Source of the DNA: Prevotella sp.
GTDB taxonomy: Bacteria > Bacteroidota > Bacteroidia > Bacteroidales > Bacteroidaceae
DNA length: 34,795 nucleotides
Reading direction: 5' to 3'
Assembly: GCA_017509155.1 (NCBI GenBank)
Contig: JAFWQE010000226.1
Location: 1-34,795 of the forward strand
Shown piece after piece: positions 6,514 to 19,485 of this stretch (position 1 is its first letter; every line of letters starts with the position of its first letter). The notes under the pieces were generated by a model that saw only the letters and a program-made list of their open reading frames with translations, made no database searches and was not told the origin of the DNA. Both the position numbers and the translations under genes were made by a program.

Positions 6514-7660
6514 ACTCCTCATGCTGTCGGCCACGGTGTGGCTGCTGGCATCGTGTGGCAACAAGAGCGCCACCATGCGGACCATCGTCAACACTGACGG
6601 AAGCTGCGAGCGCGAGATTACGACCGCTCCCGACCGCTCCGAAGGAACGACCGTCTCCGACTCCTCCGAAGATGGGGATAAGGAAGTGGAGAAAGTGCTT
6701 CTGATTGACTCTACCTGGACGGTTGGGTGGGCCTATCGCGGTGACACAGTGGTGCATCATGAGCCGTTGACCGCAGCACGCTACGACTCCATCCAGCGCG
6801 ACTTGCAGCGGCAGCACATCGACAAGCAGGTGAGCGACACCATTGTTGTGCATGCCCGCCGCCACTTTGCCTCGGTCGAAGAAATGGCGCAGTCGTCGCC
6901 TTTCCGTCTCAACGGCAAGCCCCTCTGCCCCACCATCACGCTGGAAAAACACTTCCGTTGGTTCTACACCTATTATTATTATAAGGAGACGTACCCCAGT
7001 CAGGCGTCGCTGTTCAGCCTACCTGTCACCGACTACATGAGCGAGCGTGAGGCGCAGTTCTGGTTTTGCGGACAGCCCGACCTGTCGGCAGGCGAGAGCG
7101 GAGCCGAGGCGAAGGCCCGACTCGACGAACTGGAAGATCGCATGGTGAAATGGCAGAACGCCAACCTGATGTACGAAACCTGCGAGGCCATCGCCCGCCA
7201 TTACGACGCCATACCATCCAACTCCGTCAGCAAGGCGCAGTTCCTGGCCGTCCGCGACTCGCTGGTGCGCCAGACAAGCGAGGCCGGTTTCCCCATGGAT
7301 GAAGAAAAGATGGCGGCACTGCTGCGCGACGCCTTCCACATCGATGTCTTCACTCCCCTGCTATCCGACACGTCCGTCGTCGGAAGCGAGATGGCGCAGA
7401 AGACCAACGCCTATCTGCAGCTGATCATGCTGAAGGCCAACTGCGAGGTGGTGATGCCGGGCCGCATCGTTGGCGGCAACGCGCTGAGTTTCGATGACAA
7501 CAGCGCCCGCTTCCGCCTGACAGGCGAGCGCCTCATCCCCGGCGACTACACGCTCGAGGTGGTCTCGCGCGACAGCCATATCTGGGCATTCCTGCTCACG
7601 GGCCTCATCGTAGTGCTGACCATCGCCAGCTATTTCTGGCGCGGACGGCGACGCGGCTGA
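6497..7660 (+). CDS. Lipoprotein with C-terminal membrane helix, sigma-operon member
   Basis: A 387-residue protein of unknown function. It has a lipoprotein-type signal ending at LLASC (Cys20), a low-complexity Ser/Glu/Asp segment (about 45-65), a long soluble region rich in charged helices, and a hydrophobic helix near the C-terminus (about 364-381, FLLTGLIVVLTIASYF) followed by WRGRRRG. An inner-membrane anchor at both ends is unusual and would suit a periplasmic sensor acting on the anti-sigma factor. The start overlaps the anti-sigma gene by 17 nt. I do not recognise the family; the sensor role is inferred from the operon only. Confidence 0.75.
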   Translation: MKAIDKLLMLSATVWLLASCGNKSATMRTIVNTDGSCEREITTAPDRSEGTTVSDSSEDGDKEVEKVLLIDSTWTVGWAYRGDTVVHHEPLTAARYDSIQRDLQRQHIDKQVSDTIVVHARRHFASVEEMAQSSPFRLNGKPLCPTITLEKHFRWFYTYYYYKETYPSQASLFSLPVTDYMSEREAQFWFCGQPDLSAGESGAEAKARLDELEDRMVKWQNANLMYETCEAIARHYDAIPSNSVSKAQFLAVRDSLVRQTSEAGFPMDEEKMAALLRDAFHIDVFTPLLSDTSVVGSEMAQKTNAYLQLIMLKANCEVVMPGRIVGGNALSFDDNSARFRLTGERLIPGDYTLEVVSRDSHIWAFLLTGLIVVLTIASYFWRGRRRG

Positions 7661-11970: not shown

Positions 11971-13293
11971 ATGAAAATGAATAAAAAAGCACTTGCTCAC
12001 GACGCACGATTCTCTCTCATAGCTTTGCTGATGCTCGCTGCGCAGACACTGAATGCGCAGACCCATGCCGTCGACAGCGTCATGGAACATGCGGGCGGAC
12101 ACCGGCTGAGCGTGGGCGGATATGGAGAAGTGGGCTTCACACGCAACTTCTTCAGCGACCACGTGAGCCGCTACAGTCAGCCCGAGGAGCACAAGGACGA
12201 CCCCAGCCACGGCAAGTTCGACCTGCCACACGTGGTGGTTTACCTGGGCTATGACTTCGGCCACGGCTGGACAATGGGCACAGAGATAGAGTTCGAACAC
12301 GGCGGCAACGGACTCGCCTACGAGAAAGAAGACGAGGAAGGCGGCGAATGGGAGCAGGAAGTGGAGAAAGGCGGCGAGGTGGAACTGGAGCAGTTCTGGA
12401 TTCAGAAGTCGTTTTCGAGGCAGCTGAACCTGCGCCTCGGCCACATCGTGGTGCCCGTTGGACTGAACAACGCCCACCACGAACCCCTGAACTTCTTTAC
12501 CGTATACCGTCCCGAAGGCGAGAACACCATCATGCCGAGCACGTGGCATCAGACGGGCGTAAGCCTGTGGGGACGCACCGGAAGCTTCCGTTATGAGGCA
12601 CAGCTGCTGGCAGGTCTCAACGCCGATCAGTTCACCAATACGGGCTGGATTCACAAAGGACACAAGAGTCCGCTGGAATACGACGTGGCCAACAAATACG
12701 GTGTGGCCGCCCGCATTGACAACTACAGCATTGCCGGACTGCGCATCGGCCTGAGCGGATACTATGGCCACAGCATCGGAAACACCTATCCCGCCGAGAA
12801 AAACGGCGCAAGTGCCACCTATAAAGGGCGAGTGGCCATCGGTGCCTTCGACTTCACCTACAACGCCCACAACTGGATTGTGCGCGGTCAGGCGGACTAT
12901 GGCTACCTGGGCGACGCCGAACAGCTGAAATATATGTACAACCGCAAGAACTCCAAATCGCCCTTCAAGCACTCGGCCTTTGTCAGCGGCAACGCCTACG
13001 CCTTGGGCATTGAGGCCGGCTACGACGTGTTCTCGCAGATCGCACAGATGAGGGCTGCGCAGAAAAAGCTCTATGTGTTCGGACGCTTTGAGAGCTACAA
13101 CCCCTACGCATCCGACACGAAGGGCGTGAGCTACGACTACACTTCCGTGAAGCGAATGGCCGCCGGCGTGAACTATTATCCGGTTAAACAGATAGCCATC
13201 AAGGCAGAATACAGCCACCGGTTCCTCAAGAGCAAGTACAACGATGAGCCATCGGTGAGCATCGGAGTGGCCTACGAAGGGTTCTTCCTCTGA
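11971..13293 (+). CDS. Outer-membrane porin-like beta-barrel protein
   Basis: A 440-residue protein with a signal peptide (cleavage likely after TLNAQ, about residue 30). GGYGEVGFTRNF at about 49 marks the first strand. Alternating strands follow throughout, and the protein ends with a strand terminating in Phe-Leu (VGVAYEGFFL-like), as in outer-membrane barrels. RLGHIVVPVGLNNAHHEP resembles phosphate-selective porin O/P-type proteins. It probably lets small solutes or metal ions pass the outer membrane. A Glu-rich extracellular-type loop (EKEDEEGGEWEQEVEKGGEV) and many His residues (YSQPEEHKDDPSHGKF) could bind metal, which is inferred. It is first in a locus with an imelysin lipoprotein, a di-haem protein and a cytochrome c synthase. 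Confidence 0.8.
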   Translation: MKMNKKALAHDARFSLIALLMLAAQTLNAQTHAVDSVMEHAGGHRLSVGGYGEVGFTRNFFSDHVSRYSQPEEHKDDPSHGKFDLPHVVVYLGYDFGHGWTMGTEIEFEHGGNGLAYEKEDEEGGEWEQEVEKGGEVELEQFWIQKSFSRQLNLRLGHIVVPVGLNNAHHEPLNFFTVYRPEGENTIMPSTWHQTGVSLWGRTGSFRYEAQLLAGLNADQFTNTGWIHKGHKSPLEYDVANKYGVAARIDNYSIAGLRIGLSGYYGHSIGNTYPAEKNGASATYKGRVAIGAFDFTYNAHNWIVRGQADYGYLGDAEQLKYMYNRKNSKSPFKHSAFVSGNAYALGIEAGYDVFSQIAQMRAAQKKLYVFGRFESYNPYASDTKGVSYDYTSVKRMAAGVNYYPVKQIAIKAEYSHRFLKSKYNDEPSVSIGVAYEGFFL

Positions 13294-13553: not shown

Positions 13554-14876
13554 ATGAAAAAGTATTTAATCTTTCCGATGGCCCTTCTGATGGGCACACT
13601 GTGTTTCACGTCGTGTAGCGACGATGACGACGAAAAAGAAAACAACAGCGAGTTCAGCATCATCACCACGACTCCGCTCGTTGATGAGGACTCTTACGCC
13701 GCCAACACTGTAGAAGCCAACTACAGCAACAAGCAATTTGGCAACGCTTCCATGGACGCCTGCGACGACCTGGCCAGCCAGCTTGTCAGGGCCAACAGCA
13801 TTATTGCCTCGTCGAAACTCACCGACAAGCAGCAGGAGTATCTCTACAAAGTGCTTGAGAACCTGGTGAGCAACGTGATTGTTCCCACCTATACAAAGCT
13901 GGCCGACGAGACGGAAGCCTTGGAGAAGACACTCAACGGACTGACCGTGAGCAGCATCACGCAGGCACAGATCAACTCGGCATGTGCCGACTTTAAGGAA
14001 GCCCGCAAGTACTGGGAACGCAGCGAAGCCTTCCTGGGCGGAGCAGCTGCCGACTTCGATATTGACCCGACCATCGACTCATGGCCACTCAACCGTTCGC
14101 TGCTTCTCGACTATTTCAACAACGGAATGAACGACGAGATGCTTGAAGACGCCACCATCCTGGGCTTCCACGCACTGGAGTTCATCCTCTTCCGCAACGG
14201 TCAGCCCCGCAAGGTGGCCGAGTTCCAGGGCAACGACACATACGTCAACTTCGAGAAAATCAGCGGAGAGCAGGAGCTGCGCTACGCCCAGACCATCTGC
14301 AAACTGCTGAAGGAGCGCACCTTCCAGCTCCAAGTGGCATGGGAAGGCGAGAAGAATGCCAGCCGCGCTGCCGTGGTGAAGGCCGCCAAACTCGACTATA
14401 CCACCGAGAACGGACTGTCGTTTGGCGACAATCTTACACAGGCCGGCAAAAACAGCAAGAGCTCCTTTGCCACGCTCGAAGCAGCCATTGCCCAGATCCT
14501 TAGCAACGATGAGGGCAGCTGCTTCGGCATCTGCAACGAGGTGGGAACGGCAAAGATTGCCAACCCCTTCGCCAATGCCGACATCGCATACGTGGAGTCG
14601 CCCTACAGCTATAACTCCATCACCGACTTCAGCGACAACATCCGCTCCATCCGAAACATCTGGCTCGGCTCCACCGACAAGAAGGCCAGCGCCTACAGTT
14701 TCCACACATTCTTTGCCAGCGTCAGGAACGATGCCGTGAACAATGCCGTGGAGAAAGCCTATGTGGACGCCATTGCCGGCATCAGCAACATGCCGTCGCC
14801 CTTCGTAAAATACTGCAGCGTGGTGTGGGGAAAGAGCTTCGATGACCCCGACAACTGGGAGTCTATCACCGAGTAA
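13554..14876 (+). CDS. Imelysin-family (M75-like) surface lipoprotein
   Basis: A 440-residue protein of the imelysin/EfeO-like family. The lipoprotein signal ends at FTSC (Cys21), directly followed by SDDDDEKEN, the acidic lipoprotein export signal that sends Bacteroidetes lipoproteins to the cell surface. The family motif GxHxxE is present as GFHALEF (His206, Glu209). Other family blocks are ARKYWERSEAFLGGAAADFD and IDSWPLN. Known members are implicated in iron or haem-related metal binding; the peptidase activity implied by the M75 name is doubtful. It lies between an outer-membrane porin and a di-haem lipoprotein, supporting a surface metal-uptake or redox role. The start at 13554 is preceded by an AT-rich leader. 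Confidence 0.92.
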   Translation: MKKYLIFPMALLMGTLCFTSCSDDDDEKENNSEFSIITTTPLVDEDSYAANTVEANYSNKQFGNASMDACDDLASQLVRANSIIASSKLTDKQQEYLYKVLENLVSNVIVPTYTKLADETEALEKTLNGLTVSSITQAQINSACADFKEARKYWERSEAFLGGAAADFDIDPTIDSWPLNRSLLLDYFNNGMNDEMLEDATILGFHALEFILFRNGQPRKVAEFQGNDTYVNFEKISGEQELRYAQTICKLLKERTFQLQVAWEGEKNASRAAVVKAAKLDYTTENGLSFGDNLTQAGKNSKSSFATLEAAIAQILSNDEGSCFGICNEVGTAKIANPFANADIAYVESPYSYNSITDFSDNIRSIRNIWLGSTDKKASAYSFHTFFASVRNDAVNNAVEKAYVDAIAGISNMPSPFVKYCSVVWGKSFDDPDNWESITE

Positions 14877-15027: not shown

Positions 15028-16842
15028 ATGAAGACCATCCATCTCTCAAGAACAACGCTGGCGGCACTGCTCATGGTGTCGCTCTTCAGCGCATGTAGGG
15101 ACGACAACGGCGACCCGAACGAAGGTCTGGGTCCACTGACTCCCTCGGAAAACGTATTCGGAAAAGCCAACGACACCTTCTCGGCCGAGGAATGGTATCC
15201 CGGCGGCGAGCTGGGAACCACCGACAAGGCCAGCTATTCAGCGGCCGCTCCTGCCGTAGAAAGGGTGCCTGGCATGGAGAACGACTTCAACGTGGGTGAA
15301 GATTTCTTCGAGCATCTCTACACCTTTGAACAGCAGCCCCGAAAAGGTCTCGGTCCGGCATGGGTGAGAAACAGCTGCATCGCCTGCCATCCTTCCTACG
15401 GGCATGGGAAGCGACAGACCGAGTATCGCGCCAATACCATCGGCAACGGCTACCTGCTTGTGGTCTACCATCCCAACGAAGCCTTCACCTCAGATGGCGT
15501 GCGCTACACCGTGGCGCCGTCGTCCTACATCTCTGAAGTGACCGGCATGCCGCAGACAGCCGCCATGAATCCCTTCAAGGCTCCGATAGACGAGAAGCAG
15601 ATAAGCATTGAATGGAAGAACGTAAACTCCATGCCCAGCGGACTCGCCATGGCGTTTCCCGACGGCGAGAAATACGAGCTTATCTACCCCGAAGTGAACA
15701 TTCCCGTGTCGGCCTTCAACACCAATCCGAAGCCAACGAACTATGAGGTGCGACTGGAGTCGACCATCGGACTCTACGGAACCGGCCTCATCGACGCCAT
15801 CAGCGACGAAGACATGCGCGAGCAATACCGGGCAGAGGCCGCCGCAGGTGTACAGCTGAACCCAGCCATGTGGGACAAAGCCGCCAACGACTTTGCGCCG
15901 ACAGCCTACTACAGCGCCCCCTACAACGACCTGGGAACCTTCCGCGGAAGCCACGGACCGGTGAAGAAGTTCACCTATGCCATGACACGCGGCTCGCTGC
16001 AAGACGGAGCCGGCGCCAACGCTATATGGAATATCACCAACGTGACCCGCAGCGACCGCCACTGGCTCTACACCACTCCGGCATGGGCCAAGGCACAAAG
16101 CGAGGACCAGGATGTCATCAGCTACATCAAGGAACACGGTTCGGCCGAGACCAGCATACTGCATCCCTACTATGCCGACGGCACCAACGAGGGCATCGCA
16201 CAGCGCGTGAACGAACTGCTGAGTACGTCGAGCATCGCCAAGAAAGAGACTTTCGAGAACTACCTGCTGAAGGGCTGGCCCTACAATGGTGAGGAAGAGA
16301 TGACCGACAAACAGTACTATCAGTTCATGGTTTGGCACCGCGGACTGGCCGTTCCCGCCGCCCGCGACCTGGACAAGGAGAACGTGAAGCGCGGCAAGAA
16401 GCTCTTCACCGAACTGGGTTGCACCTACTGTCACCGCTCGTCGTGGAAGACCGGCGACGACAACATGTGGGTGGACGCCGCCACAAAAGCCTATGCCGAT
16501 GCCAACGGACTGGCAAAGGACGGCGACTACACCAGGCTTTTGCCCAAGTACGCCTACCAGACTATCTGGCCCTATACCGACATGGTGCAGCACCGTTTGT
16601 TTATGATTAACGACATCCGCACTGGCTGGTGCCGCACCACTCCGCTGTGGGGACGCGGCCTTTCGCAACTGCTTACCGGCGCGAGCGACCGCCTTCACGA
16701 CTGCCGCGCACGCAACGTTGTGGAGGCCATCATGTGGCACGGCTACTCGAAAGACAGCGATGCCTACCGAAGCACGCTGAAGTTCTACAACCTGCCGAAG
16801 GAAGACCGCGACGCCGTGGTGGCCTTCATTGAGGCCATTTAG
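15028..16842 (+). CDS. Di-haem oxidoreductase-family (DUF1111) lipoprotein
   Basis: A 604-residue protein of the di-haem oxidoreductase / putative peroxidase family (MauG/CcpA relatives). The lipoprotein signal ends at FSAC (Cys23), followed by RDDNGDPNEG, an acidic probable surface-export tail. Two covalent haem motifs are present: CIACH (Cys117-His121) and CTYCH (Cys465-His469). The C-terminal family block TPLWGRGLSQ and the following GASDRLHDCRARNVVEAIMWHG are intact. It should move electrons or reduce peroxide outside the inner membrane. It depends on cytochrome c maturation, and the next gene encodes such a synthase. It follows the imelysin gene by 151 bp containing a hairpin, probably in one transcript. 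Confidence 0.93.
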   Translation: MKTIHLSRTTLAALLMVSLFSACRDDNGDPNEGLGPLTPSENVFGKANDTFSAEEWYPGGELGTTDKASYSAAAPAVERVPGMENDFNVGEDFFEHLYTFEQQPRKGLGPAWVRNSCIACHPSYGHGKRQTEYRANTIGNGYLLVVYHPNEAFTSDGVRYTVAPSSYISEVTGMPQTAAMNPFKAPIDEKQISIEWKNVNSMPSGLAMAFPDGEKYELIYPEVNIPVSAFNTNPKPTNYEVRLESTIGLYGTGLIDAISDEDMREQYRAEAAAGVQLNPAMWDKAANDFAPTAYYSAPYNDLGTFRGSHGPVKKFTYAMTRGSLQDGAGANAIWNITNVTRSDRHWLYTTPAWAKAQSEDQDVISYIKEHGSAETSILHPYYADGTNEGIAQRVNELLSTSSIAKKETFENYLLKGWPYNGEEEMTDKQYYQFMVWHRGLAVPAARDLDKENVKRGKKLFTELGCTYCHRSSWKTGDDNMWVDAATKAYADANGLAKDGDYTRLLPKYAYQTIWPYTDMVQHRLFMINDIRTGWCRTTPLWGRGLSQLLTGASDRLHDCRARNVVEAIMWHGYSKDSDAYRSTLKFYNLPKEDRDAVVAFIEAI

Positions 16843-16863
16843 TGATAGGATGTGTCGGGGGAA

Positions 16864-16990
16864 TCGGGAGTTTGGGAGTTTTGGAGTGTGGGAGTTTGGA
16901 CGTTAGTCCGGTACATGACAAGCCTTCACGGGAAGAAACAATCGTCCAGACTCCCAGACTTCCAAACACCTAAGCTCCCAAACACTGCCA
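16864..16990. repeat. Long imperfect inverted repeat of GGGAGTTTGGAG type
   Basis: The left arm (about 16864-16901) holds repeated GGGAGTTT and GGAGTGTGGGAGTTTGGA; the right arm (about 16944-16986) holds TCCAGACTCCCAGACTTCCA and CTCCCAAACA. They fold into a long hairpin with a central loop of about 40 nt between the di-haem and cytochrome c synthase genes. Confidence 0.7.
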
Positions 16991-17039
16991 CCCACACATT
17001 CCCTACAGTCTAATAGAATCAACAAATAACAAAAGCATT

Positions 17040-19337
17040 TTGAGATACACAAAGCACATAGTCGCCGTTCTCTACACGCTGATCATAGTGTGTATGGGAG
17101 CGGCGACTATCATTGAGAAGTACAAGGGCACCGGCTATGTGGCCGAGAACGTCTATGGTGCCTGGTGGTTCATTGCCCTCTGGGCACTGTTGGTGGCCGC
17201 CGGTGTGACCTGGATGCTGCACCGGCGCATGAAGAAGGCGTCGGCCGTGGTGCTCCATCTCTCCTTTGTGGTCATCCTCGCCGGGGCTTTGCTCACCCAT
17301 CTGACGTCGCATCAGGGCACCGTCCACCTGCGTCTGGGCGAGACCACCACGACCTATCTCGCCACCGACGGCCACACCTACGTCGAGCGCCCCCTGCCCT
17401 TCCCCCTGCGGCTCGACACGTTCCGCATCAGCTATCACGAGGGAACGCGCGCCGCCGCCGACTACATCAGCCGGTTCAGCATCATGACCAACGACGGAGA
17501 ACAGACCGGCATGGTGTCGATGAACCGCATCTTCAGCCACGCCGGCACGCGCTTCTACCAGAGCAGCTACGACGAAGACCTGCGCGGCAGCTATCTCTCC
17601 ATGAACAGCGACCCGTGGGGAATCCCCGTCACCTACACCGGCTACGCCCTGCTCTTCGTGGGTCTGCTGTGGATGCTTCTGGACCCCAAGGGCGACTATC
17701 GCCAGCTGTTGCGGTCGCCGGGTCTGCGGCGCGGCGCGCTGATGGCGACGCTGCTGCTGACCAGCGGCCATCTGTCTGCGAGCGCCGAAAGCCAGACGAC
17801 GCCGCCCACGCTGTCGACAGAGTCGGCCAGACTCTTCGGACAGCTCTACATGGACTACAACGACCGCATCTGTCCCGTGCAGACTTTCGCGCTCGACTTC
17901 ACCAAGAAGCTCTGCGGAAAGCGCAGCTATCGCGGACTGTCGGCCGAACAAGTGCTGGCCGGCTTCATCTTCTGGAGCCACGAATGGAGCCGCGAGCCCA
18001 TCATCAAGGTGAAGAGCGGCGAACTGCGCGAGGCCGCACAGCTGGCGCCGTTCTGCTCGGTCGACGACCTCTTCAGTGCGGCTGACGGCTACAGGCTCGG
18101 CCCGATGCTCGGAGAGTATTATCGGGGCAACCACGACAAACTGCACCAGGAGGTGATGAAGATGGACGACCGTCTGCAGCTCATCATGCAACTGCGCCAG
18201 GGACCGCCGCTGCGCCTGTTTCCCGCCACCGTCAGTCTGCCCGGCGACTCGCTCACCGCGGGCCACGGCAAACAGCTGTCGTGGTATGCGCCAACCGACG
18301 ACCTGCCCGCCACGATGGAGCCCGAACGGCGACAGTACATACAGAGCATCTTCGGCATCATGACCGAAGCCGCCCGTCAGGGAAACACCGCCCGCCTCGA
18401 CGAAGCGCTCGCCAAGCTGCAGCGATACCAGAAAACCTACGGCGGAACGTCCATCCCCTCGCCCACGAAGACGCAGGCGGAGCACCTCTACAACGCCATT
18501 CCCTTTGCCACCATCCTCTTCATGGTGAACCTCACGCTGGGACTGCTGCTGCTCTTCTACTTCATCCGCCAGGCCATAACGAGGCCGGAAGCCCAGCCAG
18601 CAGCAAAGTCCTCGCCATTGTCATTCCGTCGCATCGCATCCTTTCTGCTCTGTCTTTCGTGGCTGGCACTGACGCTCTGCCTGGCGCTCCGCTGGATCAT
18701 CTCGGGCACCATCCCCATGAGCAACGGCTACGAAACGATGCTCCTCATGGCGTGGTTCATCATGTTGGTGAGCCTGTTCACCCAGCGTCACTTCCCCATC
18801 ATACTCTGTTTCGGCTTCCTCATGTCGGGATTCTTCCTGCTGGTGAGCCACATTTCGCAGATGGACCCGCAGATCACCCACCTGATGCCCGTCCTGTCGT
18901 CGCCCTTGCTCACCATCCACGTGAGCATCATCATGATGGCTTTCGCCCTGCTGGCCCTGACCTTCATCTGCGGACTCACGGCATTGCTGCTCTCCATGTT
19001 CACCGCCCACCGGTCGCGTCTTGCGTCTCACCTCGCGTCGCTCGCCCTGCTCAGCCGCCTGTTCCTCTATCCTGCCCTCGCCTGACTGGGGTTCGGCATC
19101 TTCATCGGTGCCATCTGGGCCAACGTGTCGTGGGGCACCTACTGGAGCTGGGACCCGAAGGAAACGTGGGCGCTCATCACCTTCATGGTCTATGCCGTGG
19201 CTGTTCACGACCGCTCCCTGCCTTTCCTGCGCCGCCCCATGGGCTATCATCTCTACGTCACCCTGGCCTTCCTCACCATCCTCATGACCTATTTCGGGGT
19301 GAACTACTTCCTCGGCGGCATGCACTCCTACGCGTAA
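17040..19337 (+). pseudogene. Fused ResB/CcsA cytochrome c synthase with internal TGA
   Basis: A CcsBA-type synthase that carries haem across the inner membrane and attaches it to CxxCH cytochromes. The N-terminal ResB-like part has segments at about 9-25, 39-58 and 66-86 (VVLHLSFVVILAGALLTHL) and a large periplasmic domain. The C-terminal CcsA-like part has multiple helices and the conserved SNGYETMLLMAWF. A TGA at 19083-19085 (codon 682) interrupts the frame, and the same frame continues for 83 codons with WANVSWGTYWSWDPKETWAL, the WWD haem-handling motif. Both sides are in frame, so this is a nonsense codon rather than a frameshift. The start is TTG at 17040, since no ATG fits. Truncation would remove WWD and should inactivate the enzyme, unless TGA is read through or is an assembly error. 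Confidence 0.85.
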
Positions 19338-19416: not shown

Positions 19417-19485
19417 TTGAAAATCTTGGGAGTTTTACATTGAAAATCTTGGGAATTTTATGTTGAAAATCATGGGAATTTTGTA
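19417..19485 (+). repeat. Three 23-bp direct repeats in the ATPase promoter
   Basis: Units lie at 19417, 19440 and 19463, each starting TTGAAAATC.TGGGA.TTTT. They have two to five differences. The last one runs into the -7 box, so they look like operator-type sites. Confidence 0.85.

What the first reader, a model, noticed from the sequence alone, without database searches (positions are those of the whole stretch)
17040..19337. In-frame TGA just before the WWD motif of a cytochrome c synthase
The frame is open and conserved on both sides of a single TGA (19083-19085). The 83 codons after it carry WANVSWGTYWSWDPKETWAL, essential in CcsA. TGA serves as a normal stop for other genes here (for example sufS and the lipoprotein ending at 7660), so global recoding is unlikely. 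The gene sits beside a di-haem protein that needs it. Either this is a recent inactivation, a population polymorphism, an assembly error, or local read-through.
Basis: partly seen in the sequence, partly recalled or inferred. Interest (0 to 1): 0.75.

Follow-up and report, generated by a model that had tools for sequence, protein, structure and literature searches.

The report
Recently broken heme-attachment gene
A gut-type bacterium's gene for attaching heme to proteins is cut short by one in-frame stop codon; this looks like an ordinary fresh mutation or an assembly error in a gene that relatives often lack, not a special way of reading the code.

Summary
A fused CcsBA cytochrome c synthase gene (17040-19337) has one in-frame TGA at 19083-19085, and 83 conserved codons follow. 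The truncated product loses the WWD motif and two of the four essential histidines.

TGA is a true stop here: 9 of 22 other window genes end in it, RF2 is present, and selB reaches its cut-off in 0 of 398 same-genus genomes, so selenocysteine and recoding are out. The position is not conserved; the seven closest relatives have cysteine. The tail shows no decay (0 of 116 near-invariant columns altered), so the stop is very young, an assembly error, or read through.

It is ordinary in context. Another species has a TGA elsewhere in the gene. Of 175 good same-genus genomes, 60 lack a strong match, and 25 of those keep the neighbouring di-haem protein with a second-type CcsA. A second open ResB/CcsA pair is also in this assembly, so the claim that the di-haem protein "needs" this gene is not supported.

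Best reading: a very recent null allele (about 0.6) in a locus like an iron-starvation locus of Bacteroides. Main rival: a consensus error in a fragmentary, slightly contaminated genome (about 0.28). Functional read-through is not excluded but has no positive evidence.

The parts
17040..19085 (+). ccsBA, part before the stop (681 codons, TTG start): ResB/CcsB part and first half of CcsA, with conserved His 73 and 627 (TM-His1 and P-His1; names recalled)
19083..19085 (+). in-frame TGA, codon 682, just before the WWD motif
19086..19337 (+). in-frame remainder, 83 codons plus TAA: WWD motif, conserved His 723 and 762 (TM-His2 and P-His2; names recalled)
15028..16842 (+). di-haem oxidoreductase family protein (DHOR), open, two CXXCH motifs (CIACH, CTYCH)
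13554..14876 (+). imelysin / peptidase M75, open; same locus
11971..13293 (+). protein of 440 aa without a Pfam match, open; found in 62 of the 78 loci

Best explanation
An ordinary fused CcsBA (System II cytochrome c synthase) in a conserved imelysin - di-haem protein - CcsBA locus has acquired one very recent nonsense mutation. Translation stops at codon 682. The product keeps the CcsB part and half of CcsA but lacks the WWD heme platform, TM-His2 and P-His2, so it should not attach heme. Shown: the stop, what lies after it, no other damage at near-invariant columns, no selenocysteine machinery detected, and a second open ResB/CcsA pair in the same assembly. Inferred: that the stop is real in the cells, that it is null, and that the second pair (or simple dispensability of the locus) lets the cell tolerate it. 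It may be a polymorphism of the sampled population.
For: TGA is a working stop: 9 of 22 other window genes end in it, and prfB/RF2 is over its cut-off. The four histidines and the WWD motif are all required in the studied CcsBA (PMC6299221, passages read; alignment to H. hepaticus 7s9y). The gene is loss-prone: of 175 good genomes 115 have a strong match (E up to 1e-30), 43 only a weak one and 17 none (recount). Another TGA interrupts it in G343/L043; L018 and L094 are frameshifted, L020 has stops in an extra stretch, L088 has an internal gap, and L079 keeps only a C-terminal part. A second open ResB + CcsA pair lies on contig C23; its CcsA has 77% and 73% relatives in the near relatives G249 and G195. 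The other 22 window genes (8339 codons) have no internal stop and neither do 17 SusD-family matches, so the assembly is not generally error-ridden. Before the stop the window differs from most of nine relatives slightly more than L003 does, a weak hint of relaxed constraint.
Against: No trace of decay: 0 of 116 near-invariant columns are altered, and tail dN/dS against L003 is about 0.08. This fits an error or read-through equally well. No reads and no second genome of the same species were available. The genome is fragmentary, 82% complete and 6% contaminated, with at least one contig that looks foreign. The C23 pair could come from such a contaminant: its composition fits the window, but so does that of another species, G249. 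G343, with its own TGA, shows no strong second-type CcsA (77% complete).
Confidence: 0.6

Rival explanations
1. Assembly or consensus error: the cells carry a sense codon and the gene is intact.
For: One codon affected, no other lesion, 0 of 116 near-invariant columns altered. The genome is incomplete and contaminated. In-frame stops turn up now and then in the draft genomes searched: 2 of 150 printed matches for this protein, 1 among the printed rows for the second CcsA.
Against: 22 other genes of the contig (8339 codons) and 17 SusD matches show no internal stop; none of the printed DHOR rows does either.
Confidence: 0.28
2. Leaky or programmed read-through: a fraction of ribosomes decode the TGA, giving enough full-length CcsBA and a truncated form as well.
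For: The tail is fully conserved and no faster evolving than in L003. TGA was the leakiest stop in E. coli reporters, context-dependent, up to 80% under stress, most often decoded as Trp (5 of 10 cases) and once as Cys (PMC11126739, passages read). The affected position tolerates several residues.
Against: Not conserved: none of 117 other distinct tails has a stop at this codon. The fold after the stop is no stronger than in shuffles (z -0.7) and weaker than in L003 (z -2.0). No Rfam element of note. Tail conservation is expected anyway for a young stop.
Confidence: 0.09
3. Selenocysteine or reassigned TGA.
For: The seven closest of 92 distinct relatives have cysteine at this column.
Against: selB over cut-off in 0 of 398 same-genus genomes and not in the own genome. 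selD and tRNA-Sec not over cut-off in the own genome. RF2 present. TGA ends 9 of 22 window genes. The cysteine is not conserved further out.
Confidence: 0.01

Closest known systems
CcsBA, System II cytochrome c synthase (Helicobacter hepaticus, PDB 7s9y/7s9z)
   Same: Same fused CcsB-CcsA layout, conserved histidines and WWD; E 5.6e-100 with the read-through sequence.
   Different: The window copy has a stop before the WWD motif.
B. thetaiotaomicron BT2473-BT2482 iron-starvation locus (PMC10434189, passages read)
   Same: CcsA, thiol oxidoreductase, peptidase M75 and a porin in one locus; 69- to 324-fold up under iron limitation in the text (its table gives 62.7 as the lowest). Imelysin and DHOR are both in 61 of 69 loci that had about 4 kb before ccsBA.
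   Different: That 'thiol oxidoreductase' means DHOR is my recall of an older naming. Iron regulation was not tested for the window organism.
Nonsense pseudogenes / null alleles of dispensable bacterial genes
   Same: A single stop in an otherwise intact gene; the gene is often missing in sister species.
   Different: No decay yet, so age and fixation are unknown.

Membership tests
CcsBA cytochrome c synthase | ResB/CcsB and Cytochrom_C_asm domains in one frame | tested here: met
   Met only across the TGA: ResB and the first part before it, the rest after it
CcsBA cytochrome c synthase | Four conserved histidines and the WWD motif | tested here: met
   His 73, 627, 723, 762 and WANVSWGTYWSWD present in the DNA; the last two His and WWD lie after the stop, so the normally terminated product does not meet it
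CcsBA cytochrome c synthase | Heme attachment activity | not testable with these tools
   Needs expression
Selenoprotein | selB, selD, tRNA-Sec in the genome | tested here: not met
   None over cut-off in the own genome (genome 82% complete); selB in 0 of 398 same-genus genomes
Selenoprotein | SECIS-like stem-loop just after TGA | tested here: inconclusive
   A 60-nt fold is no better than shuffles, z -0.7, and Rfam shows nothing of note; no dedicated SECIS search was run
Genetic code with TGA = sense | TGA not used as stop, RF2 lost | tested here: not met
Pseudogene / null allele | Stop present in the cells, not only in the assembly | not testable with these tools
   No reads or second assembly of the species
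Pseudogene / null allele | Relaxed selection after the stop | tested here: not met
   Tail still conserved; a neutral period longer than roughly 10-20% of the branch since the split from L003 is unlikely (rough estimate), so at most very recent

The most novel reading that the evidence does not exclude
The TGA is a functional leaky stop that sets a low, stress-dependent dose of full-length CcsBA, linking heme attachment in an iron-limitation locus to translation accuracy.
Probability: 0.03. Interest if true: 0.65.

Novelty: new member of a known kind. Interest (0 to 1): 0.13.

Why it matters
As it stands it matters little: it is one more young stop, or one more assembly error, in a gene that relatives often lack. 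It is a caution that a conserved tail after a stop does not by itself argue for recoding, because a young stop looks the same. The useful by-product is the genus-wide pattern. The di-haem family is found in 0 of 17 good genomes with no match to CcsBA, and in 25 good genomes it persists with a strong second-type CcsA and only a weak match to this one. This suggests that the two synthases can stand in for each other.

Tried and rejected
Selenocysteine, attractive because the nearest relatives have Cys at the column, was rejected. Global recoding was rejected. A separate downstream gene starting at GTG 19125 (listed) was set aside: it would lack the stretch just before the WWD motif, and no other distinct tail has a stop at this codon. 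A whole-assembly error rate was attempted by comparing the own-genome stretches (20, three of which read N, plus L110 and the window) with ORFs from G249 and the other fetched loci. By my reading it gave only about 20 real sense-gene pairs, in which ccsBA was the only clear internal stop; the other flagged rows were antisense frames or alignments running past a gene's end. That is too small to use. NrfA as a haem partner was not found in the own genome. Literature: (Prevotella, cytochrome c biogenesis, CcsA, rumen) listed one paper, not on this case; (MAG stop codons) had no hits; (any two of CcsBA, premature stop, pseudogene) found 2,480 papers, of which only five were listed and none of those holds 'CcsBA', so it says little. 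No claim is made that this is not in print.

Rows dropped or double: five loci (L002, L096, L102, L106, L109) were left out before the codon count, and its rows repeat some genomes, the window included. One search uses 92 distinct of 103 aligned relatives, chosen for long open frames, so it cannot show other broken copies; one search recounts 117 distinct tails without that choice (six loci left out, L110 as well). The 175-genome tallies were made by hand from the printed tables, recounted, and agree with the printed totals (158 and 138); the 17 genomes without a match follow from those totals. The limit of 1e-30 for a strong match is mine.

Full report
Observation. The frame that starts at TTG 17040 runs 681 codons to TGA at 19083-19085 and continues in the same frame for 83 codons to TAA 19335-19337. 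Both parts belong to one gene: ResB and positions 1-117 of Cytochrom_C_asm lie before the TGA, positions 134-212 of the same 212-position family after it. Read through with X at the stop, the sequence matches the solved H. hepaticus CcsBA (7s9y/7s9z, E 5.6e-100) up to query residue 765 and a CcsA entry (25vk, 5.2e-98) up to 764.

What is lost. Five histidine columns are at least 90% conserved: 73 and 627 before the stop, 723, 737 and 762 after it. Aligned to 7s9y, four of them are the positions known as TM-His1, P-His1, TM-His2 and P-His2 (naming recalled). Mutagenesis showed that the four histidines and the WWD motif are all required for cytochrome c maturation (PMC6299221, passages read). 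A product ending at residue 681 should be inactive.

Where it sits. The window is contig C12 of an unnamed draft genome of 3.44 Mb in 229 contigs, 82% complete and 6% contaminated, most likely a MAG (inference). Its nearest named relatives are Prevotella MAGs; L003 and the G195 locus L118 gave identical figures and are taken as the same genome, 72% identical in protein. Upstream lie an open di-haem oxidoreductase gene with two CXXCH motifs and an imelysin/peptidase M75. Both are in 61 of 69 loci that had about 4 kb before ccsBA (presence in the locus was tested, not order). A locus of similar make-up in B. thetaiotaomicron, BT2473-82, rises 69- to 324-fold under iron limitation (PMC10434189, passages read).

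TGA is a stop here. Of 22 other genes in the window, 9 end in TGA, 9 in TAA and 4 in TAG, with no internal stop in 8339 codons. RF2 is over its family cut-off. selB is over cut-off in 0 of 398 same-genus genomes and not in the own genome; selD and tRNA-Sec are not over cut-off in the own genome. The fold just after the TGA is ordinary (z -0.7), and Rfam has nothing of note. Selenocysteine was worth testing because the seven closest of 92 distinct relatives have cysteine at the column, but the column as a whole is T 37, L 22, C 17, A 11, F 5. Without choosing for open frames, 117 other distinct tails give T 42, L 32, C 20, A 13, F 8, S 1, I 1 and no stop (the S row, L018, is out of frame here). 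That is not what a catalytic residue shows.

Age of the stop. The window has no change in any of 116 columns that are at least 95% conserved in 103 aligned relatives. Against L003 the tail has dN 0.052 and dS 0.65; the part before the stop has dN 0.232 and dS 0.736. Against nine other relatives the window's tail differs at fewer sites than L003's in each case (6 v 9, 7 v 10, 14 v 15, 12 v 14, 14 v 17, 8 v 12, 9 v 10, 11 v 13, 9 v 12). Before the stop the window is a little more diverged than L003 against most of the nine (for example 237 of 668 v 204 of 659) and less against one (L006, 296 of 661 v 314 of 654), which could be weak relaxation or mere rate variation. A rough Poisson bound puts any neutral period of the tail at no more than about a tenth to a fifth of the branch since the split. 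So the stop is very young, or not real, or read through; conservation alone cannot choose.

How unusual it is. In 398 same-genus genomes, 330 have some match. Of the 150 printed matches two carry an in-frame stop: this one, and G343/L043, where TGA falls at the second W of YWSWDPKE. L018 and L094 are frameshifted, L020 has stops in an extra stretch, L088 lacks about 350 residues in frame, and L079 keeps only a C-terminal part; some of these may be assembly faults. Among 175 genomes at least 90% complete and at most 5% contaminated, 115 have a strong match (E up to 1e-30), 43 only a weak one and 17 none (recount). The gene is dispensable on an evolutionary scale.

Does the di-haem protein need it? 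The same assembly has an open ResB (469 aa) + CcsA (273 aa) pair on contig C23. Its CcsA has close relatives in G249 (77%) and G195 (73%), so the pair is expected in this lineage. Its composition fits the window, but stretches of G249 fit about as well, so composition does not prove that C23 belongs to the same organism. In the 175 good genomes the di-haem family is present in 110 of 115 with strong CcsBA, 28 of 43 with a weak match and 0 of 17 with none (sum 138 as printed). Of the 28, 25 have a strong second-type CcsA (E up to 1e-40); G118, G203 and G300 do not. So a synthase of some kind seems usual, but not this one.

Conclusion. Most likely this is a very recent null allele of an ordinary CcsBA, tolerated because the locus is conditional (inference) and a second synthase is present. 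A consensus error is the main rival. Functional read-through is possible, since TGA can leak strongly in E. coli (PMC11126739, passages read), but nothing here speaks for it. Reads would decide between the first two; peptides or a reporter would decide the third.

Noticed in passing
window 16870-16983: Between the di-haem gene and ccsBA: a 30-nt imperfect inverted repeat (80%) made of about 8-nt GGGAGTTT-like units; RNA fold of 16855-17010 is -65.9 kcal/mol, z -5.5. Possibly a terminator or a repeat element.
   Followed up: partly
window 19417-19485: Three tandem 23-nt copies (TTGAAAATCTTGGGA...) just upstream of, and running into, the start of an AAA_14/DUF4143 gene.
   Followed up: no
L043, ccsBA (G343): Another species has a TGA at the second W of the YWSWDPKE motif of its ccsBA.
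   Followed up: partly
L088 (G007): CcsBA apparently lacking about 350 residues between residues 234 and 587, frame kept.
   Followed up: no
L168 (own genome, contig C100), 2285-3012: A second partial enolase gene, 83% identical in DNA to the window's enolase: probably foreign DNA in the assembly.
   Followed up: partly
window 17040: ccsBA begins with TTG; the nearest relatives have ATG three codons further on, where the window has a non-start codon.
   Followed up: partly
G206:C4:54990-55754: In-frame TAA in the second-type CcsA of another species.
   Followed up: no
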